A stretch of 64,000 bases of DNA, from contig NC_044930.1 of the NCBI RefSeq assembly GCF_003576645.1, positions 24,189,706-24,253,705 of the forward strand. The letters are read 5' to 3'. The translations under genes were made by a program, and so were the position numbers. The notes under the pieces were generated by a model. That model did not search any database and was not told where the DNA came from. It saw nothing but the letters and a program-made list of their open reading frames with translations. Positions 12,701 through 63,816 of this stretch are shown here, piece after piece (position 1 is the first letter of the stretch; each line of letters opens with the position of its first letter). The stretch comes from Ipomoea triloba. Lineage: Eukaryota > Streptophyta > Magnoliopsida > Solanales > Convolvulaceae.

Positions 12701-13067
12701 ATTTTTTTTAGTTAAAGAAAGTGTGAATTTCAGTGATTTAAGAATTTCAGCCAACAACATTCAATTCACAAGTAGCACTTGTAAACACCAAAAAGTCAAA
12801 AACACTTCATCTGATCTATCCACTATCCTCATGCACTTGTGAATTTTAAGTGATATAAGAAACTGTAAAGCCTCAAGGAGCCATTGCAGTCTGAGGAACT
12901 TAGCATATCAAAGAACTACTATTATGAGCCACTTTCTACTAAATGCGATCAACAATTCCACTTAATTGAGCGATATCATTAACTTCTGCCTGCCATAGTT
13001 CAAAGCTTATTAATAAATTCATTTTGTGAGCATGTTTTAGCTAATTAAGTAGAATAAATTAGCAAGG

Positions 13068-13524
13068 TGTTGTAAATAATATTAATAATAACTATGATAG
13101 TGATAATATGAAATGAAGAAACTGAAATGGAAAACACCGAAACTAGAAGAAGGAAGAAGCACTTTCATTGATGTTTCTGAGATAATCTTTTCAAAGAGTG
13201 GAGGGGGTATTTATACTATCAGGAGTGGAGTAAACAAATATATATATCTACAGTAATTGCACATAATTGTCCTAGTCTGGATGGATTTGTCAAACGCCTA
13301 AAAGCTTAGCTGCCAGCCTAAAGTCACGGGTTCAATTCCCCTAACCCATAGCTTTTGACTCCATCCTGAACTAGCTTTCCAGACAACATTTAGTTATTAA
13401 ATGTTCTGCAATCTATCACCAACAGCCGTGATAGCTAAGTAGATTAGATTTTAGTTTTTAAGTGAATGTTCCAAGGTTCGAACCACAACTTGGACATCCA
13501 CTATTTTCCTTTTGTTTCATAACA
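13068..13524 (-). repeat. 3' LTR of the minus-strand copia element
   Basis: 457 bp, identical to 19133-19589 except C at 13295 against T at 19360. On the minus strand it starts TGTTATGAAAC and ends TTACAACA. A minus-strand TATA-like GTATAAATAC lies at about 13207-13217. Two tRNA-like box-B sequences (GGGTTCAATTCC near 13329 and GGTTCGAACC near 13475) sit inside it on the plus strand. Confidence 0.92.
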
Positions 13525-13554
13525 CTCCCCCTTGGATGTCCAAAAGATGAACAC

Positions 13555-14180
13555 TATATTGCCTCGTTAAAAACCTTACCAAAGAAAAACCCATTGGGGA
13601 AAAATTTTGGATAAGGGAAAAAGAGTACAATATGTGCTCCCCCTGATCAAGACATCATTGAAGATCAAGTTCGTGTGCTCCTCCTTGTTTCTAAAGATTT
13701 TTGAGATGATGCCATATTGATTAACAGCATTTTCATTGGCCATCATCTTATCATACACATGCCTCATTAAAAACCTCGCTAGAAAAACCCTGTGGGAAAA
13801 ACCTAGCCGAGGGAAAAAGAGTACATGGTACGTCTAATTATGTATTGCACTGGTTGCCTCATTAAAAACCTTATGCTAAGAAAACCAGTGGGAAAAAACT
13901 TAGCTAAGGAAAAAGAGTACAACCATAAATCATTCATGACCTTCAGGGTCTAATCTTCGGGATAACCAGTCATAAACTTTCAGTGTATAATCTTCAGGAT
14001 TACTAGATTATACTCATGCCTCGTTAAAAACCTCATTAGAAAAACCCAGTGGGAAAAACCTAATGAGGAAAAGAGTACATGATATATGTTAAATTATGTG
14101 TTGCACCGGTTGCCTCATTAAAAACCTTACGCTAAGAAAACCCAATGGGAAAAACTTAGTTAAGGGAAAAAGAGTGCAAC
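13555..14180 (-). repeat. Degenerate repeats in the 3' untranslated region of the copia element
   Basis: Five or so imperfect modules follow the plan GCCTCATTAAAAACCTT...AGAAAACCCAGTGGGAAAAA...GGAAAAAGAGTACA (plus strand). Each module is itself partly symmetric: gctaag near the left half pairs with cttagc near the right half, so transcripts could form hairpins. Such modules lie between the end of pol and the polypurine tract in many plant copia elements (my recollection of the family). The position fits here, next to the PPT at 13525-13540. Confidence 0.7.
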
Positions 14181-16500
14181 CATAACCCCAATATAAACTT
14201 CAGGGCATAATATTCATGATTCAAGTAAATGATACTCCCCCTGAAGGTAACATTCTTCAAATCCCTTATATGAAATATATCTCCAAAATATAGAAAGGGA
14301 TTTTGTGAACAAATATGTTCAACTATTAATGGGGTAAATAATCTCGTGACTCTTCTAGAGCTCACGTGGGTATAATACTGATATCATAATATACTCATTT
14401 ATCATAGATGCAACACTATCTTCATTGTCTCCTTATAAGACAATGCGGTAAAAACCTAGTATAACCAGTTTTGGGGACTTGGCATCGTTGGGATCAAATA
14501 ATAATAGCCAGTACCCAAGTAGCCCATTAAAAACCATACATTGGTTTCTCACATAATTGCCAAAATCTTTTGTAACTCAAAGATATTGGAGGATATGTTA
14601 AACACCGTTCCAATATTTCATTATAGGAGGAGCACTAAATGTTGCTAGAAATTTCATCGCATATAAAATATCAGGCCTGATGCGATTATGGAACTTCTGG
14701 TCCCTATATGGTGCTCCAACGATAATGAATTAATGGACTTTTTGGTTCCACGATATCCTTATTATACTCTTTGAGCTTTAAACGATTCTTTATCTACTTC
14801 AAGAGATATAACCTTTAGTGTGATAAGTATCATGAGTCTAAACGGTTCCTTATCTACTTCAAGAGACATAACCGTTAAATGATACTTATTCATACAAAAT
14901 ATTCAAGGCATTTTTCAAGTAGGCTAACTGGTGTATAAAACTTCTTCAAGAAAAGCTCGATCTTCAGGTCGAGATAATACTTGGGGTTTCCCAAGTCTTT
15001 CGTTTCAAAAACTCCGTCTTTTAGGCATGAGCTAACATTATCAAATGTAGCAACTCTACGCTCATTAGCAACCCCTTAAAGAACACTTCTGGCTCATTAC
15101 CCTACTACTTGAGAGAGTAACTTCTCCAGTCGCAATCCTTTAAAGATCACATAATGACACGTAATATACTCATATTCATTTCCTTCTTCAGGATGGAAAT
15201 TACTGAGTCTAATGACCCATAATTATGCGGTCATGACGTATATCAGCTGCATATCTAATTTTATCATTCTGCCAATGATGTTATGTAGCGGAACTTAATG
15301 TCATCCTACGCGGGAGATTAAAATCAATCAAGGGTCTCTGCGTGAACCCATGAGCTACAAAACTCGCTTTATATTATACCACCTCATCATTCTCAATTTA
15401 TCTTTCGTACAAACACCCATTTGTAACCAACGAGGTTACAATCAATGGTGTACGTGCCATAAAGAGAATGTATTTTAGCGAGTTGAGCTATGCCTTAATT
15501 GCTCTTTTAAATATTCAATAATGAGGATGCTTCTAGCACCTCACCTGGATCCAGTTTATTTAAATGAGCAATTATATAGGCTCGTGTTGTCGACAACTAT
15601 TATAATTTTCTCCCACATTCATGACAATTTCTAAATTAACCAGATCGTTGACATTTCCCAAAGATATTAGGATCTGGCGTTCCGCATCCCTAGTATTACG
15701 TTTGACCGGTACACTTTACTAGGGTTTTCGTCATCTGGACGAACGTCTTCAGGACATTATTCTCATCAAGATAAGAGTGGTAATGTTTCTTTACTAGATC
15801 TAGTATTGTGTTCCTTATCTCATAAACTGATAGACCTCCTACACTTCTGGTGTGTCAAGGAGTATCAGTAGAGATATACGATCTAAATTGGGAATTAAAT
15901 ATAAGACCTAGTCACTCTTTTCTGATCAGCATGATCAGTATATATATTTGGCAGATTATTTGCTAATATTGCAAATAGATTATCTTCTGAACTTCTGGTT
16001 CAGTATAACTAGTACGTGGATTTAACTAATGAAGATTTTTCCATTCCATGGAACTTCTCGGCATTTTTATTAAATTTAGGCCTTATCTCCCCCTAATGCC
16101 GAGAACCGATCTTCATTAAGTATGCAATCAGCGTATCTATTGATCCCTAATAATAGACTCTAGGTATTTAGACAATCAGACGAAGTTCTATGATCGTCAT
16201 ATATATATACCTAGTTTTATTCAATAGCCCTTAGAGATACGCTATGGAGGTGATATAGTAAAATAGACTGCATACTAAGAATATAAACGCAGATTTGGGA
16301 AATGTTTATCACATACGTACTAGGTGTATGGGGGAATAATCATGATATGCAGTGTGTCAGATTTCATAAACAGTAGTATATCAAATTAGACTCCCATATA
16401 ATTTGAAAATTTTCATTTAAGCATGCTACATAAAATAATCATGCAAATAGGGAGACTACTGTCTGACTTATCAATATTTAGCCCAAATCAATGTTAGCCC
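14150..16500 (-). pseudogene. Decayed copia pol: integrase C-part, RT and RNase H remnants
   Basis: Fragmentary minus-strand similarity to copia pol runs in the expected order from high to low coordinates. Integrase-like peptides lie about 16500-16250 (HDYSPIHLV and AVYFTISPP). The linker ending in LGGDK is near 16090, with a region rich in NEVQ-like remnants after it. An RT start-like NLVGYKWVFVRK is at about 15440-15405, an RT fragment resembling KDLGNPKYYLDLKIE at about 15000-14940, and the C-terminal end near 14250-14220 just before a CAGGGGGAG tract. Every segment carries stops and frameshifts, so no functional product is possible. I give only short landmarks and attempt no reconstruction. 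Confidence 0.75.
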
Positions 16501-16658
16501 TGACAAATCAGTATTCCCTAAAGATGTTTGAAAACCGCAATCGTTGTAAACAGAAAGATGCGATAATTGTTATCTTTTCACAGGAATCACGAGACAACAG
16601 ACTTTGAAATACTCAATCGGTTCAAACAGTATTAGCATTCTAATACCGATTGCTCATT

Positions 16659-16667
16659 GCTATAAAT
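16659..16667 (+). promoter_or_regulatory. TATA-box candidate for the RWP-RK gene
   Basis: GCTATAAAT on the plus strand lies about 105-110 bp upstream of the RWP-RK ATG, a usual distance for a plant core promoter with a short leader. Only position and sequence support it. The surrounding DNA is AT-rich, so chance occurrence is possible. Confidence 0.4.
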
Positions 16668-16771
16668 TCATTATCCGTTTTTCCCTTTTGCCATTCTATC
16701 GCTCACATTCACTTCTGAGCATTCACCGTTCTAGACATATTACTCGTTTACTTCTTTTGTACTTTTTGCAA

Positions 16772-17696
16772 ATGGCAAATACTACTAATTCCTCATCTCA
16801 GGATAATTCTTCCTTTTGGGATGAGATTCACCTATCACCGTTAAGGGATAGTGCACAGAGTACAGATCATACTTCTGTGGGAGATTTTGAGAATGCTCCA
16901 CCAGAATTGAACGAGATAGTTGGTAAGGGTTCAACCATTTTCTAGAATTCTTATTCTATAAGTGTGATATTAACTTATAGCTTTTAATGCAGGTACTGCA
17001 GTTACAGATGTTGTGGTTGCAGACCAAAGCAATACTGTAGTGGTAGAGGAAGATAATACCATTACAACGGTAGATGTAGCAAATATAAATGCCAATGTAT
17101 TTATTGGGAGAAAGAGGACTAGGAGAACCTTTTGTGATACTACCACACTAACTTTTGAAAAGTTTTCTAAATATTTCTATTTGACCGCTGATCAAGCTGC
17201 AGAAGAATTGCAGGTCGGGCGAGCAACTTTCAAGAAAAAATGTAGGGAAGTAGGGATTGCCTACTGGCCTTATCGGAAACTTGTGAGTTTGGACAGGCTA
17301 TTAGCAAATGTCCAGGTAATTTCTAATTTTCTTTCAACTTGATATTTTGAAGTAGGTTTAACACAATTTGCGGTGTAGGAATTCGGTGAAATCAAAGATC
17401 AAGCTGAACTGCAAAGGGTAATAAAGGGGCTAGAAGATGAGAAGAAAGCGATTTTACAAAATCCAAACATAGAGTTGGCTGAGGCAACAACAAGACTCAG
17501 AGACAAATGTGACAGGAATAGTTCTAAAAAGAGAAGGTATATAGATCCGACAGCTATTCCTTCAACTATTCCAGAGAGTTCATCACAAGTTCCTATATTT
17601 CCTGATATTCCTGAATTAGCACCAGAGGACATACAGGAAGTACTCGCTTTGTTAGATGAAGATGTTCCTCCTCCCAATAATACTACTGACAATTAA
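16772..17696 (+). CDS. RWP-RK domain protein, 3 exons, inside a copia element
   Basis: Exons 16772-16922, 16993-17315 and 17379-17696 join in frame across GT-AG introns to a 263-residue protein. Residues about 103-158 form an RWP-RK-type DNA-binding domain: LTFEKFSKYF, a helix with QAAEELQVGRATFKKKCRE, then YWPYRK at 141-146. W, P, R and K of the signature are kept, but the first R of RWPxRK is Y. A basic GRKRTRR stretch and a later KKRR are possible nuclear signals. The segment after the domain is rich in E, K, L and Q and could be a coiled coil, as in RKD-type factors. RWP-RK proteins act in nitrogen responses (NLP) or egg/gametophyte identity (RKD); the small size is RKD-like, which is inference. 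The ATG at 16772 is the first in frame. A plus-strand TATAAAT at about 16661 lies upstream. The gene runs antisense to its host retroelement and keeps its introns, which argues for capture at DNA level. Confidence 0.82.
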
Positions 17697-19132
17697 AAAA
17701 AATTATGACTTATTGTTCATCTTAAACTTCCTCATCAACTTGATCATTTAATATGCTTCTTTCAAGCATATATATAGCCTTTAAAATTTAGGCATCACAT
17801 TAAATATCATAGTTCACATCCATTTTCAATATATGATATTTATGGATAGCATATACCAAATACGCATGCATATTAATCCCATAATTTTGATAAGCATATC
17901 AAAACATTTATAGCAAATGGGATAAATCATATGGCATATATTTATAAACCATAATGGAGCAAATTGAGACAAAAACAATTGTCACATAATATTCATATAT
18001 ACATCATCATATAATATATGAAATGGTGATCTAGAATGTGTGTGACAATATTCAATTATGCTCTCAAAATTTAATCATCAAACAAATATATATGGACCAT
18101 ATTCTTGTCTAAAACATGCCATAATAATAATTCTAGGAAATATGATAATTCCTAATAATATTTCACTAGTGCACAGAATAATCATTTGCACATAATTATC
18201 ATATATATGGCATTGATAATATTATATCATATTAAAATATGAATAGACTAACCTCTTCGGAGTATGGTCAAAATCTCCGATATAATATTTCAATTACCGA
18301 TTCCGCTATAATCCCATGCTTTTTGATTCCTTGCTCAATAAAGTGTGATCAAATTAAATAATTCAATATATATAATTTCCACCAATTACTTCATAATTGG
18401 TGATTCCTTGCTCTGGGTTCCAATATCTCCGTGAACTGCTAGTTTGCTACAAGCATCTTTGGTATACTCAACGACAAAAACTTCACATCTCCATTAAAAG
18501 CACAGTACAAGTATCTTTGGTCTAATATGTCAGATTTTATTATAATATAATATATTATACTAGCACGTACAATATATAAAACATATATACTCCGTATATG
18601 TTTATGATATATGGGTAGTAGCCTTACCCCTATTCAATATAGATAGATATTAGATAGGGTAGCATAGAATAGCCTTTCGGCTATGTAGTATATACTGTGT
18701 ATATACATATATTTTAATAATAATAATATATAAATATGAAAGATTGTTATGTTCTGGGAGACAAAGCAGTACCTAATCCTTTGTCATCTTCTTTATTATT
18801 CAAACCTTAGCTTTTGTGACTTGGTCGAAGTTAAAGCATTTCCAGTGTTGCCACCTTCATTCCTCCCTCCAAGCTTACTGGCGCAATCTTGCGTTCATTC
18901 TGCATAATTCCAAACAGTAAAATACTAACAAAATATTTGTTATTTTGTGCTTTTCAAGAGAAATAAAGAAGGTTGAGAAGCTAAGGGAGATAGTTGCAGA
19001 TGGGGTAAAAGGGAGAGAGATCGTCGCATGAAGAAGACGAGAGGCGGGCAGCGTCGTTGGTTTAGTTTTCGCCGGAAAAAATGGTGAAAGTAATTATTGT
19101 GAATTTGGGGTAGAGCACTCGTGCTGATAACG
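17697..19132. other. Unassigned interior of the copia element
   Basis: This is AT-rich DNA downstream of the RWP-RK stop, where gag and the start of pol would be expected on the minus strand. I find no recognisable gag, protease or zinc-knuckle remnant. The last 250 bp (about 18880-19132) are GC-richer and would be the 5' leader of the element. A short minus frame near 18920 (starting MQNERKIAP) is the only gag-like possibility and is too short to call. The gag region appears to have been replaced when the RWP-RK gene was acquired. Confidence 0.5.
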
Positions 19133-19589
19133 TGTTGTAAATAATATTAATAATAACTATGATAGTGATAATATGAAATGAAGAAACTGAAATGGAAAAC
19201 ACCGAAACTAGAAGAAGGAAGAAGCACTTTCATTGATGTTTCTGAGATAATCTTTTCAAAGAGTGGAGGGGGTATTTATACTATCAGGAGTGGAGTAAAC
19301 AAATATATATATCTACAGTAATTGCACATAATTGTCCTAGTCTGGATGGATTTGTCAAATGCCTAAAAGCTTAGCTGCCAGCCTAAAGTCACGGGTTCAA
19401 TTCCCCTAACCCATAGCTTTTGACTCCATCCTGAACTAGCTTTCCAGACAACATTTAGTTATTAAATGTTCTGCAATCTATCACCAACAGCCGTGATAGC
19501 TAAGTAGATTAGATTTTAGTTTTTAAGTGAATGTTCCAAGGTTCGAACCACAACTTGGACATCCACTATTTTCCTTTTGTTTCATAACA
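19133..19589 (-). repeat. 5' LTR of the minus-strand copia element
   Basis: 457 bp, one mismatch to 13068-13524 over the full length with no indels. The minus-strand TATA-like GTATAAATAC at about 19272-19282 would drive leftward transcription through the element. It is flanked on the right by the CAAGG target duplication (19590-19594) and on the left, inside the element, by the PBS-like sequence. Confidence 0.92.
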
Positions 19590-19599
19590 CAAGGGACAA

Positions 19600-44025: not shown

Positions 44026-45359
44026 TCAAAAGTTCCCCAGCTTGGCTCTGCTAACTGAAACCAACCAAAACCCCATCTTAATACACTTAATTGAAGTGCA
44101 TCGAATTATCTAGCATTAAAATTAAAAAAAAAAAAAAACTTACTGTACAGTGCAGAAACTTCGGACTTCTTCAATAGGCGCAGCCTCTTAGCCGAAGATA
44201 TAAACATGCTGTAAACATATTTGTTTATAGAACCAAGTAAGACTATGAATTATATATTAGCCAATCTAGAGCATATAGTACATGGATCACCCCATAAGAT
44301 TTTGTGAATTTGTTTATAGAACCAAGTAAGACTATGAATTATATTAGCCAATCTAGAGCATATAGTACATGGATCGCCCCATAAGACTTTGTGAGCTCTC
44401 CAATTGCTTGGTTAAGACTTAAGAGTCCTAGGTGAATAGGTCATATCATATGAGGTGTGTGCACAAAGCTGGTTAATGAATGAGTCAGCCTCTTTGGGTA
44501 ACCTTGAGAAATGAACGAACTGTGACCCTATAAATTGCTTAGATACCGTAATATGCAGTCCTTTTTGATATTCAGTAGAGTATAGTATTGCTATGGAATT
44601 AGTGAAGTTATAAGTGAGAAAAACTAGTGCTTACTGCCAGGGAACATCACCAACTAGCATTCTGTCTCCTTCCTCATCTTCATAAACTAGTGTATATTCC
44701 TTGCTTCCTGTTATTCCACTGTCAGCTTGTGCAGTTGCTTTATTTCCCTCTAGATCAGCCAAATCATCTCTTTGAGCTAGAACCAAAAATGAAAATTAAA
44801 AATAGAAGTCAGATAGAATGGTGTTGGCTTTCTGTGATATGTTGTTTTTGAGATTACCAGCAAGAAGTCCTGTGAAGAGTGCATCAACACCTGAGTAGAG
44901 TGCTTCATAATTGTCATAAACTGTCAGATCAACTTTTCTTCCTATGGGGACACCCTCCATGTTAACCTTCACAAACAGAGCATCTCTAGGCTTTTCTGAG
45001 CTACCATCATCTTTCTCCTCCGTGATCATACTAGTCATCTTTGGGCTTGTTTGCTTCAGAGAACCACTAGCTGTAGCGTTTTTTCTAGACGAACGAACTG
45101 GGGGCCACCCGATGACTGGGCTCTTCTCGAGCCTGCAGTTTTTGGCGCTCCTTTGATCTTGTGCAGGCGAAGTCCTATTTGTACCTTCATGTAATATCCC
45201 TCTTTTGGCTCCAGGAAGAGAAAGCAGAGGAGGTTGTTCTTGCCCCGGAGGAGCAAGCCTAAGCTCGAGCTTTCTATTCTCTAAGATTTCATGTTTTCCA
45301 TTGCTCTCACTCGCGGTTCCTTTAGGGATCGCATAGAGAAACTTGGAAATCTCTTCCAT
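44026..45359 (-). CDS. Aux/IAA auxin-response repressor (IAA26/IAA18-like)
   Basis: Four minus-strand coding exons (45359-44858, 44776-44635, 44208-44144, 44054-44026) join in frame to 245 residues with GT-AG introns. Domain I is an EAR repression motif, LELRLAPPG (31-39), which recruits TOPLESS. Domain II is VIGWPPVRSSRKN (82-94), the degron bound by TIR1/AFB with auxin; the GWPPV core is intact, so turnover should be auxin-dependent. Domains III-IV form the PB1 fold: LFVKVNMEG with the basic-face lysine and VPIGRKVDL, then YTLVYEDEEGDRML with the acidic OPCA face, GDVPW and KRLRLLKKSE as the basic NLS tail. The start MEEISKFLYAIPKG resembles the IAA26/PAP1 group; the subgroup is inference. 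The product acts in the nucleus on ARF factors. The last exon codes for only nine residues and the stop. Confidence 0.95.
44219..44400. repeat. Tandem duplication in an Aux/IAA intron
   Basis: Two copies of about 90 bp, starting TTTGTTTATAGAACCAAGTA and containing GCATATAGTACATGGATC, lie head to tail in the intron between coding exons 2 and 3 (44209-44634). They differ by a 2-bp indel and a few substitutions. Splice sites are not affected. Confidence 0.85.
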
Positions 45360-45396
45360 TCTGTTGTTTTATAGATCGAGAAAAATTGAAGGAGAA

Positions 45397-53243: not shown

Positions 53244-53492
53244 GCAATTGAAACTTCGTCTGAATTATTTTAAATATTTTCTTCAATTATTTTCAAGTTT
53301 ATAAATTGCATTGTATCAATTCTCTATAGATTTGACCCTTGATTTTGCACACTATTATTACAATGATTCGTGCACTTGCGAATACTATTTAAAATTGTTC
53401 ATCATATATATATATATATATATAGAAATCTGTTCAAATGTGGTCGCGCCTTCCCGTGCGGCCGTGCGATTTACACCACTCAATGTTAAGAA

Positions 53493-53659
53493 TGTGAGTT
53501 ATGTTATGTTACGTTTATTATTTTATATCATATAGTCCTAATGTTTATTGTTAGTCAATGTTTACTTACCTGTAGAATAAGGGAGGTTATAGCTACCTCT
53601 CTTATAGATGTACTAGGACTCTGTAATTCAGTTCAATTCAATCTAATCCTACGTTCATC
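53493..53659 (+). repeat. 5' LTR of the plus-strand copia element
   Basis: 167 bp, starting TGTGAGTTATG and ending ACGTTCATC. It matches 63652-63816 apart from a 2-bp indel (ATATAGTCC against ATAGTCC) and a few substitutions. The end lacks the usual CA, but the AAGAA duplication fixes the boundary. TGGTATCAGCC, a variant of the usual initiator-tRNA PBS, follows directly. Confidence 0.85.
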
Positions 53660-53729
53660 TGGTATCAGCCGGAATCGCGATCCTCTCTCCTAACTCTCTT
53701 CCCGTAACATCCCATACACTACCTTTCCG

Positions 53730-54719
53730 ATGGCGACACCGTCCGGTGAAGGAGCGATCACCCCCTCCATTGCCATCGCCTCCCCGCCGACTCCTACTCT
53801 TTCATCGGCGAATCACCATATATCTATCAAACTAAATACCAGAAATTATATATATTGGAGAACGCAGATACTGCCGCTGTTACGTAGCCAGGGCTTGTTG
53901 GGATATATAGACGGCTCACTGCCGTGCCCACCAGCCACACTCTCCGATGCTGCGCCGGCGTCTTCTACGTCGCCGACAGTGCTGAATCCTGCCTACCTGC
54001 CGTGGATCCAACAAGATCAAGCCATATTGTCGCTGATCGTCTCCTCGCTAACGAGCGAGGTAATGTATCTTGCGGTTGGCAAGGACACATCCCGTGCTGT
54101 TTGGGATTCAATCACAGTGGCTTTAGCGTCACAATCCCGAACACGCTGCCTCAGTCTGCTTGGACAATTCCAGACACTTCGCCAAGGGAATTCGACGCCG
54201 ACGGAGTATCTCGGTCAAGCACAAATGATCGTGGAGGCGTTTTCGCTCGCCGGCCGGCCCCTCTCCGCCGACGAGTAGATCCTGTACGTGTTTTGGGGAT
54301 TGCGTCCGGAGTTTCGTGCAATGGCGAGCACCCTCACTGCGTCTGCAACGCCGTTAACCCTACCTCAGTTGGCCGACCACTTACAGGCTCAGGAATTCAT
54401 CCATGCCGATGAGTTCATCCCTGCTGATTCATCGGTGTCGTAGAATTCCCCTGCTGCTTTCTTCGCTGGTCGCGGACGGATTGGATCGAGCGGAGGTGGA
54501 GGCCGTCAATCCGGTGGTCGAGGCGGTAGAAACTGGCGAGGCCGTGGCTCCGGCAACTCCGGCCGCGGCGGCAGAGGCGGTGTACCGCGCTGCCAGATTT
54601 GCAGGTCTCACGGCCATACGGCGGTGACCTGCTTCCGGCGGTATGATGATCGGCCGGCAAACCAGGCGCACGCTGCATTCGCTAGTGACTCGCCGGCGAC
54701 GGGGACGGCTGAAGCCTAG
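53730..54719 (+). pseudogene. Copia gag and nucleocapsid region, with stops
   Basis: Starting at ATG 53730, the frame encodes a copia gag of the UBN2/Retrotran_gag type (HHISIKLNTRNYIYWRTQ near the start). After a Gly/Arg-rich stretch comes a CCHC zinc knuckle, CQICRSHGHTAVTC, near 54593-54634. In-frame stops occur at 54276-54278, 54441-54443 and 54717-54719; the reading frame is otherwise unbroken. Gag packages the element RNA. This copy cannot make a full-length product. Confidence 0.85.
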
Positions 54720-55982
54720 TATCCCGACACGGGGGCGACCTCCCACACCACGCCTGATGCGCATATGCTCGACCATTCCGAACCATACTCGGGGTCTGAT
54801 GTTCTGAAAGTAGGAAATGGTACAGGTTTGGACATATCTAGTGTAGGTTGCACGGTTATCCCATCTGCGTCGCACCCGTTAAAAATGTCAAATATCCTTC
54901 ATGTCCCTAATTTATCGCTCTCATTACTGTCTGTTTATAAGTTCACGAACAAAAATAATGTTTACTTTGAATTTCACAAAAATTGCTTTTTTGTGAAAGA
55001 TTCAACAACTCAGGCAGTTCTGCTTAAGGGATTCACATCGGGTGGTTTGTACCGGTTACCTGTTTTAAATAATCACCACGCCTTTCTTACCGCCCGAGCC
55101 TCACCCGTCACTTGGCATCAGCGTCTGGGTCACCCGCATGGTCAAGTCTTACAGCGTGTTTTGAAACACTGTCCAGTCACATCTCATAAAGTCGGTTCGT
55201 TAGACGTTTGCTCGGCGTATCAACTCGGCAAATCGTCTCGGTTTCCACTAGATAGGGTGCAGAACAATTCTCGAAATGTACTCGATTTAATTTTTACAGA
55301 CATTTGGGGTCCATCACCTGTTATTTCTAGTTCAGGGTGTCGGTATTTTGTGTTATTCGTAGACGATTATTCACGATATACCTGGTTTTATCCTATGAGT
55401 GTAAAATCTGATATTTATAAAATTTTTGAAGTTTTTCGGGCGATGGTAGAACTACGGTTTTCGCGTTCTATCAAAGTCATCCAGTCTGATTTAGGCGGAG
55501 AATACCGTCGATTACACACTATATTTGAATCTCTGGGTATTGTACACCGCCAATCCTGTGCGTATACACACGAACAAAATAGGAGGGTAGAGCGCCGTAA
55601 TCGGCACATTGTAGAAACAGGGTTATCTTTACTTGCTCAAAGCTCCACTCCACTTAAATATTGGGACTTCGCTTTCGAGTCTGCAACCTTTTTAATCAAC
55701 AGCTTACCCTCTTCTGCTATAAGTTTCCAGACTCCTCATTACAAAGTATACAATGTCCATCCGCCATACTCCTTCTTTCGAGTCTTTGGGTGTCGGTGTT
55801 TTCCTTATCTCCGACCCTACAACCGTCACAAAATCGAGTATAGGTCCGCACCGTGTGTCTTCCTAGGTTATCTAGTTTCATATAGGGGATACCGTTACTT
55901 AGACCTAAACACTGGAAAAGTCTATATCTGTCGTCATGTCCGCTTTGATGAAAACTTTTTTCCCTTTCAGGCTAAGTTGTAG
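54720..55982 (+). pseudogene. Copia protease and integrase region
   Basis: DTGATSH, the aspartic protease active-site motif, follows at once after the stop at 54717-54719. The GAG-pre-integrase/HHCC segment reads TWHQRLGHP...DVCSAYQLGKSSR; the second Cys of the expected CxxC is Tyr, so zinc binding is probably lost. The integrase core shows FTDIWGP, SDLGGEY and EQNRRVERRNRHIVE, giving the D, D and E residues. A stop at 55980-55982 ends the segment. The protein would insert element cDNA. Confidence 0.85.
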
Positions 55983-56039
55983 GGAAGTGAACCACTGGAC
56001 ACGCCTACTGCACCATGGGCTACTGCTCCGTTACATACA

Positions 56040-57011
56040 AATGCGCCTTCACTGCCACTTAATATGCCGCCTCTATTTAACACTACTGAGACTCCAGATC
56101 TCCAGCCGTCCTCATCACGAACTGGGTCTGATGTACAGTTGTCAACTTCAACTACAGGGCCACCTGCTACTACTACTCAGGCAACAACTGGTGGACATGC
56201 TATGAGAACTCGCAAAAAGACTCGGGGAACTGGTGAGCAGTTTTATGCTCTTCATACTACCACAGATCCGACCTGTTATACTCAAGCGGTCAAACACGTG
56301 TATTGGAGGGATGCAATGGATCAGGAGTTTAATGCTTTACTCCACAACAACACCTGGAAATTAGTGCCCGCATCGCCACTCATGAATATTATTGGGTGCA
56401 AATGGGTCTATCGCACCAAACGGAAGGCCGACGGTACCATTTAAAGGTATAAAGCTCGTCTCGTTGCAAAAGGTTTTAATCAGGTTGTCGGGGAAGATTT
56501 TTTCGACACTTTCAGTCTGGTGGTCAAACCTACCACTGTCAGACTATTATTTTCTCTAGCAGTTACTCATTCCTGGTCCCTCCGTCAACTCGATGTCCAC
56601 AACGCATTTCTGAATGGTCATTTACCAGAAACGGTTTATATGAAGCAACCACCCGGGTATGAAGATCCACTACATCCTGATCATGTCTGCCATCTCCAGC
56701 GTTCCCTTTATGGTTTGAAGCAAGCTCCACGCGCTTGGTTCAAGCGGCTACACGATTTCTTAATCTCTACCGGCTTCTCATCCTCCAAAACTGATGTGTC
56801 GTTATTTTTCTACACTGCTGGTGACTCTCGGGTATATCTCCTTGTTTATGTCGATGATATCATTATGATGGGTAACGACTCGGCCTTGATTGACTCTCTT
56901 CTTCATCGCCTCTCTACTACATTCAAGATCAGGGATCTAGGCACACCGGGATTCTTCCTCGGCATTGAAACTCTAACATATGGTGGGGTTATCTTTTGTC
57001 TCAGAATCTAG
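56040..57011 (+). pseudogene. Copia reverse transcriptase, truncated by insertion
   Basis: A linker rich in T, P and S is followed by the RVT_2 domain: WKLVP, CKWVYRTKR, a stop at 56442-56444, YKARLVAKGF, DVHNAFLNGHL, LYGLKQAPRAWF and the YVDD catalytic box near 56848. The frame then reaches FFLGIE and stops at 57009-57011, where unrelated DNA begins. The last part of the RT domain and the connection to RNase H (on the order of 100 codons by comparison with the family) are missing from both sides of the insertion. Confidence 0.88.
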
Positions 57012-57458
57012 TGTGCACAGCTAAGTTGAGTTTATGCAAAAGTGGTGTGTGTCCTTCATACTCTTACTAATTCAATTCCAAGATTGCATGCAAAGATCAA
57101 ATAGGACTTTTACAAGCTTATAACGGGGCTAGGGGGTTAAGGTTTAAACAAAGAAGGGGTAAGGAAATCAAAAAGAGAGAAAATTCACATTTATTCACAA
57201 TTAGGATTTTAGAAGAGATAAAATTTTTAGGAGCATTTTACAAATGAGAACAATACAACATTATTACAAAGGGGATAAAGAGTAAAAATACAACATTTTT
57301 TTTTTCGAAATTTTTTTTTTCGAATTTTTTTTTTCTCGATTTTTTTTTTGAAATTTCTATTTTTTTTCTTTTCTCAATTTTTGGCAAGAATAGCTCACGG
57401 GAGAATAAGCTATTCTAGTTTATTGAATAGCCCACGGGAGAATAAGCTATTCTAAATT

Positions 57459-57459
57459 N
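57459..57459. other. Single-N join followed by a 1.6-kb duplication
   Basis: The base after N (57460) restarts the sequence found at 55853. Segment 55853-57458 and segment 57460 onward match at constant offset 1607 through the copia RT and into the gypsy-like insert, including all stops. They diverge only in the AGAATAAGCTATTCT tandem repeat near 57400-57458. This is the signature of two overlapping contigs placed end to end. Confidence 0.85.
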
Positions 57460-58618
57460 GTGTGTCTTCCTAGGTTATCTAGTTTCATATAGGGGATACC
57501 GTTACTTAGACCTAAACACTGGAAAAGTCTATATCTGTCGTCATGTCCGCTTTGATGAAAACTTTTTTCCCTTTCAGGCTAAGTTGTAGGGAAGTGAACC
57601 ACTGGACACGCCTACTGCACCATGGGCTACTGCTCCGTTACATACAAATGCGCCTTCACTGCCACTTAATATGCCGCCTCTATTTAACACTACTGAGACT
57701 CCAGATCTCCAGCCGTCCTCATCACGAACTGGGTCTGATGTACAGTTGTCAACTTCAACTACAGGGCCACCTGCTACTACTACTCAGGCAACAACTGGTG
57801 GACATGCTATGAGAACTCGCAAAAAGACTCGGGGAACTGGTGAGCAGTTTTATGCTCTTCATACTACCACAGATCCGACCTGTTATACTCAAGCGGTCAA
57901 ACACGTGTATTGGAGGGATGCAATGGATCAGGAGTTTAATGCTTTACTCCACAACAACACCTGGAAATTAGTGCCCGCATCGCCACTCATGAATATTATT
58001 GGGTGCAAATGGGTCTATCGCACCAAACGGAAGGCCGACGGTACCATTTAAAGGTATAAAGCTCGTCTCGTTGCAAAAGGTTTTAATCAGGTTGTCGGGG
58101 AAGATTTTTTCGACACTTTCAGTCTGGTGGTCAAACCTACCACTGTCAGACTATTATTTTCTCTAGCAGTTACTCATTCCTGGTCCCTCCGTCAACTCGA
58201 TGTCCACAACGCATTTCTGAATGGTCATTTACCAGAAACGGTTTATATGAAGCAACCACCCGGGTATGAAGATCCACTACATCCTGATCATGTCTGCCAT
58301 CTCCAGCGTTCCCTTTATGGTTTGAAGCAAGCTCCACGCGCTTGGTTCAAGCGGCTACACGATTTCTTAATCTCTACCGGCTTCTCATCCTCCAAAACTG
58401 ATGTGTCGTTATTTTTCTACACTGCTGGTGACTCTCGGGTATATCTCCTTGTTTATGTCGATGATATCATTATGATGGGTAACGACTCGGCCTTGATTGA
58501 CTCTCTTCTTCATCGCCTCTCTACTACATTCAAGATCAGGGATCTAGGCACACCGGGATTCTTCCTCGGCATTGAAACTCTAACATATGGTGGGGTTATC
58601 TTTTGTCTCAGAATCTAG
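57460..58618 (+). pseudogene. Second copy of the copia integrase-end/RT segment (probable assembly duplicate)
   Basis: Apparently identical to 55853-57011, carrying the same stops at 57587-57589 and 58049-58051 and the same YVDD box. It should not be counted as a separate gene. See the join at 57459. Confidence 0.85.
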
Positions 58619-58984
58619 TGTGCACAGCTAAGTTGAGTTTATGCAAAAGTGGTGTGTGTCCTTCATACTCTTACTAATTCAATTCCAAGATTGCATGCAA
58701 AGATCAAATAGGACTTTTACAAGCTTATAACGGGGCTAGGGGGTTAAGGTTTAAACAAAGAAGGGGTAAGGAAATCAAAAAGAGAGAAAATTCACATTTA
58801 TTCACAATTAGGATTTTAGAAGAGATAAAATTTTTAGGAGCATTTTACAAATGAGAACAATACAACATTATTACAAAGGGGATAAAGAGTAAAAATACAA
58901 CATTTTTTTTTTCGAAATTTTTTTTTTCGAATTTTTTTTTTCTCGATTTTTTTTTTGAAATTTCTATTTTTTTTCTTTTCTCAA

Positions 58985-59190
58985 TTTTTGGCAAGAATAG
59001 CTCACGGGAGAATAAGCTTTTCTCAATTTTTGGCAAGAATAGCTCACGGGAGAATAAGCTATTCTAGTTTATTGAATAGCCCACGGGAGAATAAGCTATT
59101 CTATTCTAGTTTATTGAATAGCCCACGGGAGAATAAGCTATTCTAAACTAGTTTATTGAATAGCCCACGGGAGAATAAGCTATTCTAAAT
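58985..59190. repeat. Tandem repeat GAATAGCCCACGGGAGAATAAGC
   Basis: Units of about 38-45 bp, containing TTATTGAATAGCCCACGGG and AGAATAAGCTATTCT, occur about four times, preceded by two copies of TTTTTGGCAAGAATAGCTCACGGG. AGAATAGCTTATTCT is palindromic. The first contig (57385-57458) has fewer units, which may be why the assembly failed here. An array of AAATATTTACAAAATAAATG units (59207-59277) follows. Confidence 0.8.
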
Positions 59191-60332
59191 TGTCAAGACA
59201 ACCCCAAACATAAATATTTACAAAATAAATGTTGCAAAGACAACCCCAAACATAAATATTTACAAAATAAATGTTGCAATAAAATTCAATGCTCCAAATT
59301 AAATCTCTTCAACAAAAATTATGAATAAATGATATATTCTCTCAAGGGTGAAGGGAAACATTTTTTTTTTATGGTTAAGGGTTTAATGACAAGGTTAGGA
59401 CTCAATTACCTTAATCTTCCTTTTAATGCATATGAGGAATATTAGGATAATTAAGAACAAAAGAAAATAAATACAACGGGGTTTAACAAAAAATTCAAAA
59501 GGCTCAACGGGGGTAACAAGGGTAACATATATAACGGGTAGGTTTAAAGGCTCGGGCTAACAAAAATGGCCTATATCATTTCTAAGCATGCAATCATTAG
59601 ACTTCACAAAGAGAGTATTATGACAAGATATAACAATTAAACCAACACCGGTATCTCACATAAGCTTTCACTAGCAATGCACAACACACTAGATCAATAA
59701 TTTATCCAATTGATTAATGGTTAACAAGGATATTGGCAAGAGAATAGCTTAATCATATGTTTCACCTTGATTCATCTATCACAAGTCAAATTGTAACAAG
59801 TCCAAAACAAACCACCAACCAACAAGGAGGGAATAATCACAACTTCTAGCATGATAGCAATTCATTCACAAAATAAGCTCATGAGTCATCCAAGCAAAAT
59901 TTCAATATATGTTCACTCCCCCACACTTAAAAATTTACATCGTCCTCGATGTAAAATAAAATAATGCACAATAGGGGGAGGAGAAATTGGATCAATTAAA
60001 CAAGATAATACATTAAAGCACAAATTAACATAAGGAGCAAGTGAAAGGTAAAGAAAACTCCCTTAATGAATTTCTTGTCCACCCTCAAGAGTCATCAAGA
60101 AGCCTCTTCAAATCAAAACATACTCCTCAATGTTGATCCAAAAATTATGAGTGATGTGGTGATGCCCATTTTTTTCGTGATTGATTTCTCCACTCTCCTC
60201 AAGTGCATGCAAATATTCCCTTAGAGATGCTACAACAAAAACAAAATACAAAACAAAACAAAACACAATAAAAACATAAAAATGAACTAGTCTCCTAGAA
60301 TCAATATTTGTTAATGTCAACACAAAAACCAC

Positions 60333-60350
60333 TCCCCGGCAACGACGCCA
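60333..60350 (-). other. Primer-binding site of the gypsy-like element
   Basis: Minus-strand TGGCGTCGTTGCCGGGGA, the tRNA-primed start site typical of Athila/Tat-group elements (family knowledge). It is repeated at 62025-62042 through the assembly duplication. The adjacent LTR end reads TTACAACCA followed by AAT. Confidence 0.7.
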
Positions 60351-60937
60351 ATTTGGTTGTAACTTTTAGGTACACGCAAATACCCGGAGTATTCCGGGGT
60401 TATCGATCCACAGGGAATGGTTGGTCAAGCACTAACTCGAATTGATTCTTGTGAAGCTAGTTCGACAATAACATGGTTATAACAACAAAACTAAATAACA
60501 AAAATAAAAACAACAAATGAAGAGAGATATATTAGATGCAACATATGTAAGGATATGGATCGGGTCAATGCCCATCATGAGTCAAACAAATGTAGAAAAG
60601 AAGTTTTATCCCTTGTGAATGGAGGAAATGCACTAAAGTCCTCGGTGCCACTCTCGTGATCTACCCGAATGTGCCAAACCGCAAGTTATCTACTCTCGTA
60701 GTCTACAAGCGAGGCTCGTCTTAAAGATCCTAAGCAAATCAACATGCCCAAACTCAAGTTAATCCTACAAGTTGTGAGGAGGCAGCCTAAACTAACCTCT
60801 AGATTCCAACACGCTGTCACCCGTGAAGGAACCGTTTTGGCTAACTTCTAAATTCCAACCCGCTCTCGCCAGTGAAGGAACCGAAGATTAGCCGAGAAAT
60901 CCCCCTACAATTTATCAAGCTCTCGCATTGTATAAAT

Positions 60938-62630
60938 NCAAACATAAATATTTACAAAATAAATGTTGCAATAAAATTCAATGCTCCAAATTAAATCTCT
61001 TCAACAAAAATTATGAATAAATGATATATTCTCTCAAGGGTGAAGGGAAACATTTTTTTTTTATGGTTAAGGGTTTAATGACAAGGTTAGGACTCAATTA
61101 CCTTAATCTTCCTTTTAATGCATATGAGGAATATTAGGATAATTAAGAACAAAAGAAAATAAATACAACGGGGTTTAACAAAAAATTCAAAAGGCTCAAC
61201 GGGGGTAACAAGGGTAACATATATAACGGGTAGGTTTAAAGGCTCGGGCTAACAAAAATGGCCTATATCATTTCTAAGCATGCAATCATTAGACTTCACA
61301 AAGAGAGTATTATGACAAGATATAACAATTAAACCAACACCGGTATCTCACATAAGCTTTCACTAGCAATGCACAACACACTAGATCAATAATTTATCCA
61401 ATTGATTAATGGTTAACAAGGATATTGGCAAGAGAATAGCTTAATCATATGTTTCACCTTGATTCATCTATCACAAGTCAAATTGTAACAAGTCCAAAAC
61501 AAACCACCAACCAACAAGGAGGGAATAATCACAACTTCTAGCATGATAGCAATTCATTCACAAAATAAGCTCATGAGTCATCCAAGCAAAATTTCAATAT
61601 ATGTTCACTCCCCCACACTTAAAAATTTACATCGTCCTCGATGTAAAATAAAATAATGCACAATAGGGGGAGGAGAAATTGGATCAATTAAACAAGATAA
61701 TACATTAAAGCACAAATTAACATAAGGAGCAAGTGAAAGGTAAAGAAAACTCCCTTAATGAATTTCTTGTCCACCCTCAAGAGTCATCAAGAAGCCTCTT
61801 CAAATCAAAACATACTCCTCAATGTTGATCCAAAAATTATGAGTGATGTGGTGATGCCCATTTTTTTCGTGATTGATTTCTCCACTCTCCTCAAGTGCAT
61901 GCAAATATTCCCTTAGAGATGCTACAACAAAAACAAAATACAAAACAAAACAAAACACAATAAAAACATAAAAATGAACTAGTCTCCTAGAATCAATATT
62001 TGTTAATGTCAACACAAAAACCACTCCCCGGCAACGACGCCAATTTGGTTGTAACTTTTAGGTACACGCAAATACCCGGAGTATTCCGGGGTTATCGATC
62101 CACAGGGAATGGTTGGTCAAGCACTAACTCGAATTGATTCTTGTGAAGCTAGTTCGACAATAACATGGTTATAACAACAAAACTAAATAACAAAAATAAA
62201 AACAACAAATGAAGAGAGATATATTAGATGCAACATATGTAAGGATATGGATCGGGTCAATGCCCATCATGAGTCAAACAAATGTAGAAAAGAAGTTTTA
62301 TCCCTTGTGAATGGAGGAAATGCACTAAAGTCCTCGGTGCCACTCTCGTGATCTACCCGAATGTGCCAAACCGCAAGTTATCTACTCTCGTAGTCTACAA
62401 GCGAGGCTCGTCTTAAAGATCCTAAGCAAATCAACATGCCCAAACTCAAGTTAATCCTACAAGTTGTGAGGAGGCAGCCTAAACTAACCTCTAGATTCCA
62501 ACACGCTGTCACCCGTGAAGGAACCGTTTTGGCTAACTTCTAAATTCCAACCCGCTCTCGCCAGTGAAGGAACCGAAGATTAGCCGAGAAATCCCCCTAC
62601 AATTTATCAAGCTCTCGCATTGTATAAATN
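60938..62630. other. Second duplicated contig between single-N joins
   Basis: 60939-62629 repeats 59247-60937 (1691 bp, constant offset 1692), and both copies end with the same TTGTATAAAT immediately before an N (60938, 62630). A contig wholly contained in the end of its neighbour is the simplest reading. The sequence after 62630 then continues the same LTR. Confidence 0.85.
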
Positions 62631-63225
62631 GAAAAGGGACTAATCTAATCTCAAAATTGGATATTGAAGAATGGAGAAATGAGGGGTATTTATAGTTGGG
62701 CAAAGGCAGGGGCAAAATTGGAATTTGGACTGCAGAATTCTCGCGCATGGTCAACGATTTTCGCCGCGGCGAGCCTAATTCTCGTCGCGGCGAAAGTCCA
62801 AAAATCCAGGCAGTGTGAAAATGGACAATAGGCGTCTGTTTCAGGACGCAGACAGACGCCTATTGTCCTCCTCCAAAATCTCTGCAGAATCTTCCACTTT
62901 CTCTTTTTGCTTTTGGCTCCATGTTTTATGCCTCTTTTTGCCTTCTTTCATTTGTCTTTTGCTTCCCACTCATCACATCATTCCACCAAATCATATCTTC
63001 CACCTACTTGGTGCAATTAAATATACACATACAAAACAAGATTATAAATGCCACTACAAAATATTAATATTATGCTCAATTATCAAATCTTCATCATCTT
63101 TGGTCAAATAATAATTATTTATCACAATGAAGAAATTCAATATTATTAAGAACATAATATAAATATTTAGTGGTAGAAATGGATTTAAATATGGGGTAAA
63201 AATATGACCAAATATACTCTTATCA

Positions 63226-63644
63226 GCTATGCGGTCTTCTATGGTACTAATCTGATTTCTTGGGTCTCCATGAAGCAGCGCACAGTTGCTCGTTCGTCTA
63301 CTGAAGCTGAGTACAAAGGTTTAGCTGACGTAGCTGCTGAAGTCACATGGGTCGTTTCCTTGCTTCGTGAATTACGGCTACACTCTAGTCAGCCTGCGAC
63401 GTTATGGTGTGATAATCTCGGCGCTACTTACATGGTAGCGAATCCCGTCTTTAATGATAGGACTAAGCATGTTGAAGTCGATTATCACTTTGTTCGCGAT
63501 AAAGTTGCCTCCGGGGAGTTACAAGTTTGTTTTGTCTCCACTCAAGATCAGCTTGCGGATATCTTCACCAAACCGCTGCCTGCTCCACGTTTTCAGACTC
63601 TTCGTGCCAAGCTCAATGTTGTGCCACCCCAACCTTGTGCTTGA
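63226..63644 (+). pseudogene. Copia RNase H domain (C-terminal end of pol)
   Basis: After the nested insertion the copia frame resumes with YAVFYGTNLISW, then KQRTVARSSTEAEY (the RNase H catalytic Glu region), LWCDNLGA with the Asp, HVEVDYHFVRDKV and ADIFTKPLP, ending at the stop 63642-63644. The segment itself has no internal stop. It is separated from its RT, so this copy cannot act. Confidence 0.88.
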
Positions 63645-63651
63645 GGGGGCA
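63641..63651 (+). other. Polypurine tract of the copia element
   Basis: TTGAGGGGGCA directly precedes the 3' LTR, the position of the plus-strand primer. Confidence 0.7.
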
Positions 63652-63816
63652 TGTGAGTTATGTTATGTTACGTTTATTATTTTATATCATAGTCCTAATG
63701 TTTATTGTTAGTCAATGTTTACTTACCTGTCGAATAGGGGAGGTTATAGCTACCTCTCTTATAGATGCACTAGGACTCTGTAATTCAGTTCAATTCAATC
63801 TAATCCTACGTTCATC
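63652..63816 (+). repeat. 3' LTR of the plus-strand copia element
   Basis: 165 bp matching 53493-53659, followed by the AAGAA duplication (63817-63821). Differences from the 5' LTR include the AT indel, GTAGAATAAGG against GTCGAATAGGG and one base in TAGATG(T/C)ACT. This pair is more diverged than the LTRs of the 13-kb element. Confidence 0.85.

What the first reader, a model, noticed from the sequence alone, without database searches (positions are those of the whole stretch)
13063..19594. Recently mobile copia-type element carries an intact, intron-containing RWP-RK transcription factor gene in antisense
Seen: identical-length LTRs with CAAGG duplications enclose a three-exon gene whose exons join to an uninterrupted 263-residue RWP-RK protein on the strand opposite to the element. 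Known: RWP-RK/RKD factors control egg-cell and gametophyte identity, and gene capture with introns by LTR elements is uncommon. Inference: the element spreads a DNA-binding regulator gene and could seed a TE-borne RWP-RK family. The antisense arrangement would also let element transcripts silence the gene, or the gene's own promoter could oppose element transcription.
Basis: partly seen in the sequence, partly recalled or inferred. Interest (0 to 1): 0.88.

Follow-up and report, generated by a model that had tools for sequence, protein, structure and literature searches.

The report
Regulator gene carried by several transposons
In the wild morning glory Ipomoea triloba a young jumping element carries a complete, intron-containing RWP-RK regulator gene on its reverse strand, and close relatives of that gene travel in other, unrelated kinds of jumping element and look as if they are being kept working.

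Summary
Confirmed and enlarged. At 13063-19594 lies a young, non-autonomous copia-type element: 457-bp LTRs with one mismatch, CAAGG duplications, and a PBS and PPT that put its sense on the minus strand. A three-exon, 263-residue RWP-RK gene runs antisense. The host is Ipomoea triloba. The gene matches 40 scored places in its genome, the window included. I read the window and 20 others; ten of these 21 have LTR pairs with perfect 5-bp duplications. Against the window, the LTRs of the other nine share 48-99% identity, but the gene 96-99% in eight; the ninth is partly masked. So the gene with about 400 bp upstream moves between element backbones. Related copies lie in a Helitron with a PIF1 helicase and antisense behind a copia pol with a long open frame. 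A larger Helitron holds six RWP-RK gene stretches. The coding sequence is under purifying selection (omega 0.28-0.40) and intact in 11 of the 14 closest copies, while the window's own pol is wrecked. Carriage is shown; the protein's use is inferred, and there are no expression data.

The parts
13063..13067 (.). target-site duplication CAAGG, left
13068..13524 (-). LTR (3' LTR in element sense), 457 bp; holds two tRNA-like A/B box pairs on the plus strand
13525..13533 (-). polypurine tract next to the 3' LTR
13559..14215 (-). imperfect repeats of a 3' untranslated motif (about 70 bp units, 75-85% alike)
14893..15494 (-). wrecked pol: three collinear RT-like pieces (15396-15494, 15284-15373, 14893-15075); 25-30 stops per frame in 14400-15500
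16372..16771 (+). upstream region of the RWP-RK gene, conserved between element backbones; TATAAA at 16661
16772..16922 (+). RWP-RK gene exon 1
16923..16992 (+). intron 1 (70 bp, GT..AG)
16993..17315 (+). RWP-RK gene exon 2, carries the RWP-RK domain
17316..17378 (+). intron 2 (63 bp, GT..AG)
17379..17696 (+). RWP-RK gene exon 3 with stop
19119..19132 (-). primer binding site CGTTATCAGCACGA, half-tRNA-Ile type
   Evidence: fit to tRNA-Ile recalled
19133..19589 (-). LTR (5' LTR in element sense), 457 bp
19590..19594 (.). target-site duplication CAAGG, right

Best explanation
A young non-autonomous Ty1/copia-type element (Bianca-type primer site) carries an intact RWP-RK gene with its own upstream region as a mobile module. 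Shown: the module sits antisense in ten LTR- and TSD-complete insertions with several LTR types; a close relative sits in a Helitron and another antisense behind a copia pol with a long open frame; the reading frame is held by purifying selection. Inferred: antisense placement lets an intron-bearing gene survive retrotransposition, because in the element's genomic RNA the introns run backwards and are not spliced; the gene is transcribed from its own promoter; enzymes come in trans from autonomous relatives; the module passes between LTR backbones by recombination, probably template switching between co-packaged RNAs; and the protein is an accessory regulator that helps the elements, for instance by acting on element promoters in reproductive or embryonic cells, where RKD-type proteins work (recalled). 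I put carriage and spread at about 0.95 and the element-serving role at about 0.45.
For: LTRs, TSD, PBS, PPT and gene. 40 scored gene matches on 14 of 17 contigs. Ten of 21 loci read have LTR pairs with perfect, mutually different 5-bp duplications; four have identical LTRs. Gene conserved where LTRs are not, introns included. Helitron copies: PIF1 helicase, collinear shared segments, hairpin plus CTAG end. Copia-3 copies: antisense gene next to open pol. Omega 0.40, 0.37 and 0.28 with p 6e-5, 1.6e-14 and 0.009 against omega = 1; DNA-binding part 0.10-0.17 against 0.37-0.58 in the N-terminal part, in four pairs. Eleven of 14 closest copies intact.
Against: No expression data. The selection signal could predate carriage or come from constrained source copies, since the module is exchanged between copies and differences cluster in exon 3. 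The test restricted to the four copies with near-identical LTRs is modest (p 0.009). The RT evidence for copia in the window is weak. Direction of transfer between element classes is unresolved. Six of 21 copies read are broken or masked in the gene.
Confidence: 0.7

Rival explanations
1. Passenger cargo: a host RWP-RK gene was captured, perhaps first by a Helitron, and is copied along without serving any element. Its conservation reflects recent spread from a constrained source.
For: Capture of host genes by plant LTR elements and Helitrons is documented (PMC7264820, parts 1 and 2 read; PMC13317346, passages). Several insertions are too young to have decayed. Exchange between copies occurs. 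Broken copies exist.
Against: Omega stays below 1 within the closest subfamily and among the four copies with near-identical LTRs. The gene is held intact while the window's pol is wrecked. Three kinds of carrier hold complete genes.
Confidence: 0.35
2. Host benefit: elements multiplied a host regulator and the plant keeps the extra copies, as proposed for heat tolerance in pearl millet.
For: RWP-RK genes overlapping intact LTR elements are reported in pearl millet (PMC10011142, passages). RKD transcripts are reported in sweet potato roots but not in I. trifida roots (PMC5234144, passages); whether they stem from element copies is unknown.
Against: The ten LTR copies are young and lie at scattered places. 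Their being fixed or shared between species was not tested.
Confidence: 0.12
3. The antisense gene matters as RNA: its transcript pairs with element RNA and tunes silencing, and the protein is incidental.
For: Antisense transcription of LTR elements as a source of siRNA is discussed for Grande and others (PMC7264820).
Against: Purifying selection on amino acids; the gene also sits in Helitrons, on the helicase strand in L022.
Confidence: 0.08
4. An ordinary host gene that happens to lie between two unrelated LTRs.
For: No empty-site comparison with another species or accession was possible.
Against: Ten loci with LTR pairs, PBS and ten different perfect duplications around the same gene.
Confidence: 0.01

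Closest known systems
Antisense additional ORFs of plant LTR elements (Grande gene23, RIRE2, Retand, PvRetro13; PMC7264820)
   Same: Gene antisense to the element; Grande's is transcribed from its own promoter and encodes a nuclear protein
   Different: Those ORFs are described as without clear host relatives; here it is a recognisable RWP-RK gene with two introns. In the window it lies on the 5' side of the RT remnant, not between pol and 3' LTR; in L027 and L028 it has the known position behind pol. The carriers are copia and Helitron
RWP-RK genes inside intact LTR elements of pearl millet (PMC10011142, passages)
   Same: RWP-RK family expansion associated with LTR elements
   Different: The passages seen say nothing of orientation, introns, exchange between backbones or Helitrons
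Gene transduction by LTR elements (maize Bs1 and surveys in rice and sorghum, as cited in PMC7264820 and PMC13317346)
   Same: Host gene sequence carried by an LTR element
   Different: Described as usually in element sense; here antisense, complete, with introns, in many copies
Bianca lineage of Ty1/copia (PMC6317226, passages)
   Same: Half-tRNA-Ile type PBS, 5-bp duplication
   Different: Non-autonomous, gag and integrase not seen, with an added gene
Helitrons
   Same: PIF1 helicase, hairpin and CTAG 3' end, gene cargo with introns (carriers of the second group and of the six-gene array)
   Different: Cargo of up to six RWP-RK gene stretches; Rep domain and 5' end not read
Helenus / TRIMp3 (PMC10886601, abstract, passages and section 3.6)
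   Same: tRNA-like boxes in the LTR, 5-bp duplication, anticodon-region PBS
   Different: Helenus are TRIMs under 1 kb without genes; this element is 6.5 kb with a gene

Membership tests
LTR retrotransposon | Two LTRs (TG..CA), PBS, PPT and target-site duplication | tested here: met
   ten of 21 loci with pair and perfect duplication
Ty1/copia, Bianca lineage | PBS complementary to half tRNA-Ile | tested here: met
   CGTTATCAGCACGA in the window; lineage rule from PMC6317226 passages; the tRNA letters are recalled
Ty1/copia, Bianca lineage | RT/INT/RH phylogeny | tested here: inconclusive
   Only three weak collinear RT-like pieces; no Pfam match; no tree possible
RWP-RK protein, RKD type | RWP-RK domain, no further domain such as PB1 (the RKD/NLP distinction is recalled) | tested here: met
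   PF02042 E 6.6e-17 is the only family over its cut-off; the motif reads YWPYRK instead of RWPxRK
RKD type | Acts in egg cell, gametophyte or embryo | not testable with these tools
   No expression or binding data
Antisense ORF of the Grande/Retand kind | Antisense ORF between pol and 3' LTR | tested here: not met
   Window: the gene lies on the 5' side of the RT remnant. In L027 and L028 the gene does lie antisense behind pol
Helitron (carriers L021, L022, L024 and the six-gene array) | PIF1-type helicase | tested here: met
   L022 9.6e-66, L024 5e-35; L037 4.6e-66; for L021 no helicase was found in the stretch fetched
Helitron (carriers) | 3' hairpin followed by CTRR, flanked by T | tested here: met
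   CTAG then T in L022 and L024, CTAT in L021; CTAG then T in the array on C9 and C3
Helitron (carriers) | Rep domain and 5' TC end | not tested
   Those parts were not fetched
Helenus / TRIMp3 | tRNA-like sequence in the LTR | tested here: inconclusive
   Two A/B box pairs; 2 or more B boxes in 0.45% of 2000 shuffles, 1 or more A/B pairs in 3.9%; Rfam tRNA 17 bits against a cut-off of 29
Helenus / TRIMp3 | TRIM shorter than 1 kb without genes | tested here: not met
   6522 bp with a gene

The most novel reading that the evidence does not exclude
RWP-RK genes have become a shared accessory regulator of mobile elements in morning glory: at least two copia types and two Helitron types carry RKD-like transcription factors that look functional, have passed them between element classes, and use them to act in egg, pollen or embryo cells, where new insertions can be inherited.
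Probability: 0.45. Interest if true: 0.93.

Novelty: new variant of a known kind. Interest (0 to 1): 0.84.

Why it matters
RKD-type RWP-RK proteins are regulators of egg cells, gametophytes and early embryos (recalled; CitRKD1 and somatic embryogenesis in citrus nucellus, PMC6090715, search listing only). A transposon that carries one could act in the very cells where insertions become heritable. The system makes it testable whether transposons keep host-type transcription factors for their own use, and it shows how an intron-bearing gene can travel in a retrotransposon: backwards. It also matters for annotation: of the public I. triloba 'RKD1-like' proteins, P0001 is identical to the product of an LTR-flanked copy (L010) and P0002 to that of a copy with the Helitron end (L021).

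Tried and rejected
Pfam on single pol pieces found no retroelement domain. tblastn of the window's other copia element against this one gave no significant hit, so shuffled local alignments were used, with weak results. Rfam found no tRNA over its cut-off in the LTR; ARAGORN found none in the window. Two viral-contig scans found no relatives. The solved-structure search gave only a poor ribosomal-protein match. The AlphaFold model of P0001 was weak (mean pLDDT 49.5; mostly 66-80 over residues 101-190) and was not searched further. A third protein search, with P0020, returned only Ipomoea proteins, so no source gene outside Ipomoea is known. A domain tree is unrooted with low support around the copia and first-Helitron copies, so the direction of transfer is unsettled. 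Repeats around the gene in the window were only short ones, no sign of a nested transposon. A Helenus-type element was rejected on size. The domain-against-rest protein comparison was significant for some pairs only: not for P0001 (p 0.24) or P0008 (p 0.48), nor for the P0002-P0003, P0003-P0004 and P0003-P0005 pairs.

None of the five that answered named Helitron among its terms, so I cannot say that the Helitron link is absent from print.
Full report
WHAT IS THERE. The window lies in an assembly of 462 Mb in 17 contigs. Seven of its contigs have exactly the lengths given for contigs that encode Ipomoea triloba proteins, so the host is I. triloba. The element runs from 13068 to 19589, flanked by CAAGG on both sides. 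Its LTRs are 457 bp and differ at one site, about 84,000 years at 1.3e-8 per site and year (rate as in a passage of PMC10011142). The PBS next to 19133 and the PPT next to 13524 show that its sense strand is minus. The RWP-RK gene lies on plus: three exons, GT-AG introns of 70 and 63 bp, 263 residues, TATAAA at 16661, 111 bp before the start codon.

WHICH KIND OF ELEMENT. The PBS CGTTATCAGCACGA is of the half-tRNA-Ile type, which a survey of plant LTR elements ties to the Bianca lineage of Ty1/copia (PMC6317226, passages; that these letters fit tRNA-Ile is my recall). The minus strand holds a wrecked pol: the three frames of 14400-15500 have 25-30 stops in about 366 codons. Three short pieces match copia RT motifs in the right order, each weakly, and the best-scoring piece of that test lay elsewhere and out of order. 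I found nothing recognisable as gag or integrase. I call it a non-autonomous copia-type element; Bianca membership is met on the PBS and not testable on RT phylogeny.

COPIES AND TARGET SITES. The gene DNA matches 40 scored places of 82 first-look candidates, on 14 of 17 contigs, the window included (the tool calls its counts lower bounds). Of the other 39 I fetched 20 with flanks and two more in part (L029, L030). Of the 21 loci read with flanks, 14 form the closest subfamily: 13 at 94-100% over the whole gene, and L025, 100% over its first 574 bases. Ten of these 14 have an LTR pair with a perfect 5-bp duplication, all different: CAAGG, CATAT, ATATA, ATTAA, GCAAC, AATTA, GATAT, AGTTG, TCTGT, CTATT. 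L012, L015, L018 and L025 have identical LTRs; the others differ at 1-5 sites. L011, L014, L016 and L017 gave no clean pair; all four have N runs in the fetched stretch, and L014 holds an internal duplication of 1310 bp. The ten share the primer site, with one substitution in L012.

THE GENE MOVES INDEPENDENTLY OF THE BACKBONE. Against the window, LTR identity is 99% for L009, L010 and L012, 79% for L025, 71-72% for L015, L018, L019 and L020, and 48% (not really alignable, 270 bp long) for L013. The gene is 96.4-99.4% identical in eight of these nine; L025 scores 82% because exon 3 is masked by N, its exons 1 and 2 being above 99%. Windowed identity shows a block from about -400 to the stop with 91% or more per 100 bp in the 13 sister copies, except one upstream bin at 66% in L015 and L017 and masked bins in L025. 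On the 3' side homology ends within about 100 bp of the stop in 6 of the 13. L018 and L020 have LTRs 76% alike but genes 99.8% alike. Introns are about as conserved as exons, so selection on the protein cannot explain the contrast; exchange between backbones can. Template switching as the route is my inference.

OTHER CARRIERS. A second group (L021-L024, L026) is 85-89% like the window gene. L022 and L024 carry a PIF1 helicase ORF upstream (E 9.6e-66 and 5e-35) and share collinear segments from the helicase across the gene to a common 3' end. L021, L022 and L024 end alike, with a GCGC hairpin, at which homology stops: CTAG then T in L022 and L024, CTAT in L021. That is a Helitron end. L023 and L026 were not assigned. 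A third group (L027, L028) is about 82% alike over the gene, lacks intron 1 and keeps intron 2. There the gene lies antisense directly behind copia pol: an open frame of 1100 residues running off the fetched end in L028, two frames in L027, with gag_pre-integrs, rve and RVT_2 domains in the pieces searched. That is the antisense position described for Grande and Retand (PMC7264820, parts 1 and 2 of 3 read). L027, L029 and L030 share an element edge beginning TGTTGGTCCC with different flanks; their far LTRs were not read.

A LARGER HELITRON. C9:2816300-2838250 holds a PIF1 helicase ORF (E 4.6e-66), an ORF with a replication-factor-A domain (E 1.3e-12) and a second, weak one below cut-off (E 0.005), and six RWP-RK gene stretches found by tblastn; five were scanned with Pfam and all five pass the RWP-RK cut-off. 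Its 3' end is hairpin plus CTAG then T; a chromosome 3 copy is 98.8-99.4% identical over the two parts read and diverges two bases after CTAG. By my count 24 places match the last gene of this set at 56-60% identity to P0020; only these two loci were read, so 24 is a count of matches, not of checked elements. Over the whole genome the family search scored 150 of 380 candidates, and all 150 pass the curated cut-off; 0 of 14 control genomes matched. Many of these are exons of element-borne genes; ordinary host RWP-RK genes are among them too. For scale, 36 RWP-RK genes are reported in Zanthoxylum armatum (PMC11202622, abstract in the listing).

SELECTION. Fifteen of the 21 genes are intact by my alignment, 11 of 14 in the closest subfamily (L011 and L016 have stops, L025 is masked). 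NG86 ratios average 0.32 over 55 pairs within that subfamily, 0.28 to the Helitron group and 0.29 to the copia-3 group. In four pairs split by region, the DNA-binding part shows 0.10-0.17 and the N-terminal part 0.37-0.58. Codon models give omega 0.40 (subfamily 1, 10 distinct genes, p 6e-5), 0.37 (14 distinct genes, p 1.6e-14) and 0.28 (W, L009, L010, L012, p 0.009) against omega 1 with kappa at its fitted value; with kappa fixed at 2 the p-values were smaller. These tests ignore exchange between copies, and differences cluster in exon 3. In a neutral simulation the frame stayed unbroken in 0.25% of 400 runs by the time identity fell to 71%. Only intact copies entered the codon tests.

HOW IT MOST LIKELY WORKS. 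In sense orientation, splicing would strip the introns of a gene carried by a retrotransposon. In antisense the introns are not spliceable in the genomic RNA, so promoter, exons and introns are copied together. This follows from orientation and general knowledge. The segment that moves as a block, upstream region plus coding region, is what an independent gene needs. I think it most likely that the elements profit from the protein, but passenger cargo remains a serious rival.

TRACES IN SWEET POTATO. Several I. batatas proteins returned are gene models in which a piece of this gene, starting near residue 51 (the exon 2 acceptor) and ending at residue 124 before a GT, is joined to other genes: ARF2-like (P0013), RABD2a (P0014), a shaggy-related kinase (P0023). 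They may be annotation artefacts, but they show the sequence within or near many genes. All 24 proteins returned by the two searches with this gene were from Ipomoea; those searches reach only relatives that share short words.

PRIOR ART. RWP-RK genes overlapping intact LTR elements are reported in pearl millet (PMC10011142, passages). Antisense ORFs in LTR elements are known, mostly of unknown origin (PMC7264820). RKD transcripts in sweet potato but not I. trifida roots are reported (PMC5234144, passages); their link to element copies is unknown. I judge this a new variant of a known kind. An intact, constrained, intron-bearing transcription factor shared between retrotransposons and Helitrons did not show in the listings of the five searches that answered, none of which asked for Helitrons.

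Noticed in passing
L035-L037 (G000:C9:2816300-2838250); L038-L039 (chromosome 3 copy): A Helitron about 20 kb long over the part read, with PIF1 helicase, replication-factor-A domain and six RWP-RK gene stretches; 24 places match its last gene.
   Followed up: partly
L040 (G000:C9:11524800-11529300): Two intronless head-to-head ORFs of 394 and 419 residues, each with two RWP-RK domains; more than ten further places show the same domain pair. The carrier, if any, was not identified.
   Followed up: partly
L041 (G000:C1:22740800-22742500): A 333-residue RWP-RK open frame; 11 places have an open frame of exactly this length.
   Followed up: no
window 13273-13339 and 13432-13485, repeated in the second LTR: The LTR holds two tRNA-like A/B box pairs on the strand of the RWP-RK gene; support is weak.
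   Followed up: partly
window 53492-63816: A second copia element (RVT_2 E 9.8e-55) with two large internal tandem duplications, 99.4% and 99.9% identical, either real or assembly artefacts.
   Followed up: no
L031-L034 and the P0020-like places: A further RWP-RK group (82-98% like P0020, at about eleven loci); the loci read share about 3 kb of flanks at 86-90%, so they are dispersed repeats too.
   Followed up: partly
P0013, P0014, P0023 (Ipomoea batatas): Gene models of ARF2-like, RABD2a and shaggy-kinase proteins that include a piece of this RWP-RK gene, possibly exonised element copies.
   Followed up: partly
window 44796-45368 (-): AUX/IAA-like ORF, Pfam E 7.1e-28.
   Followed up: no
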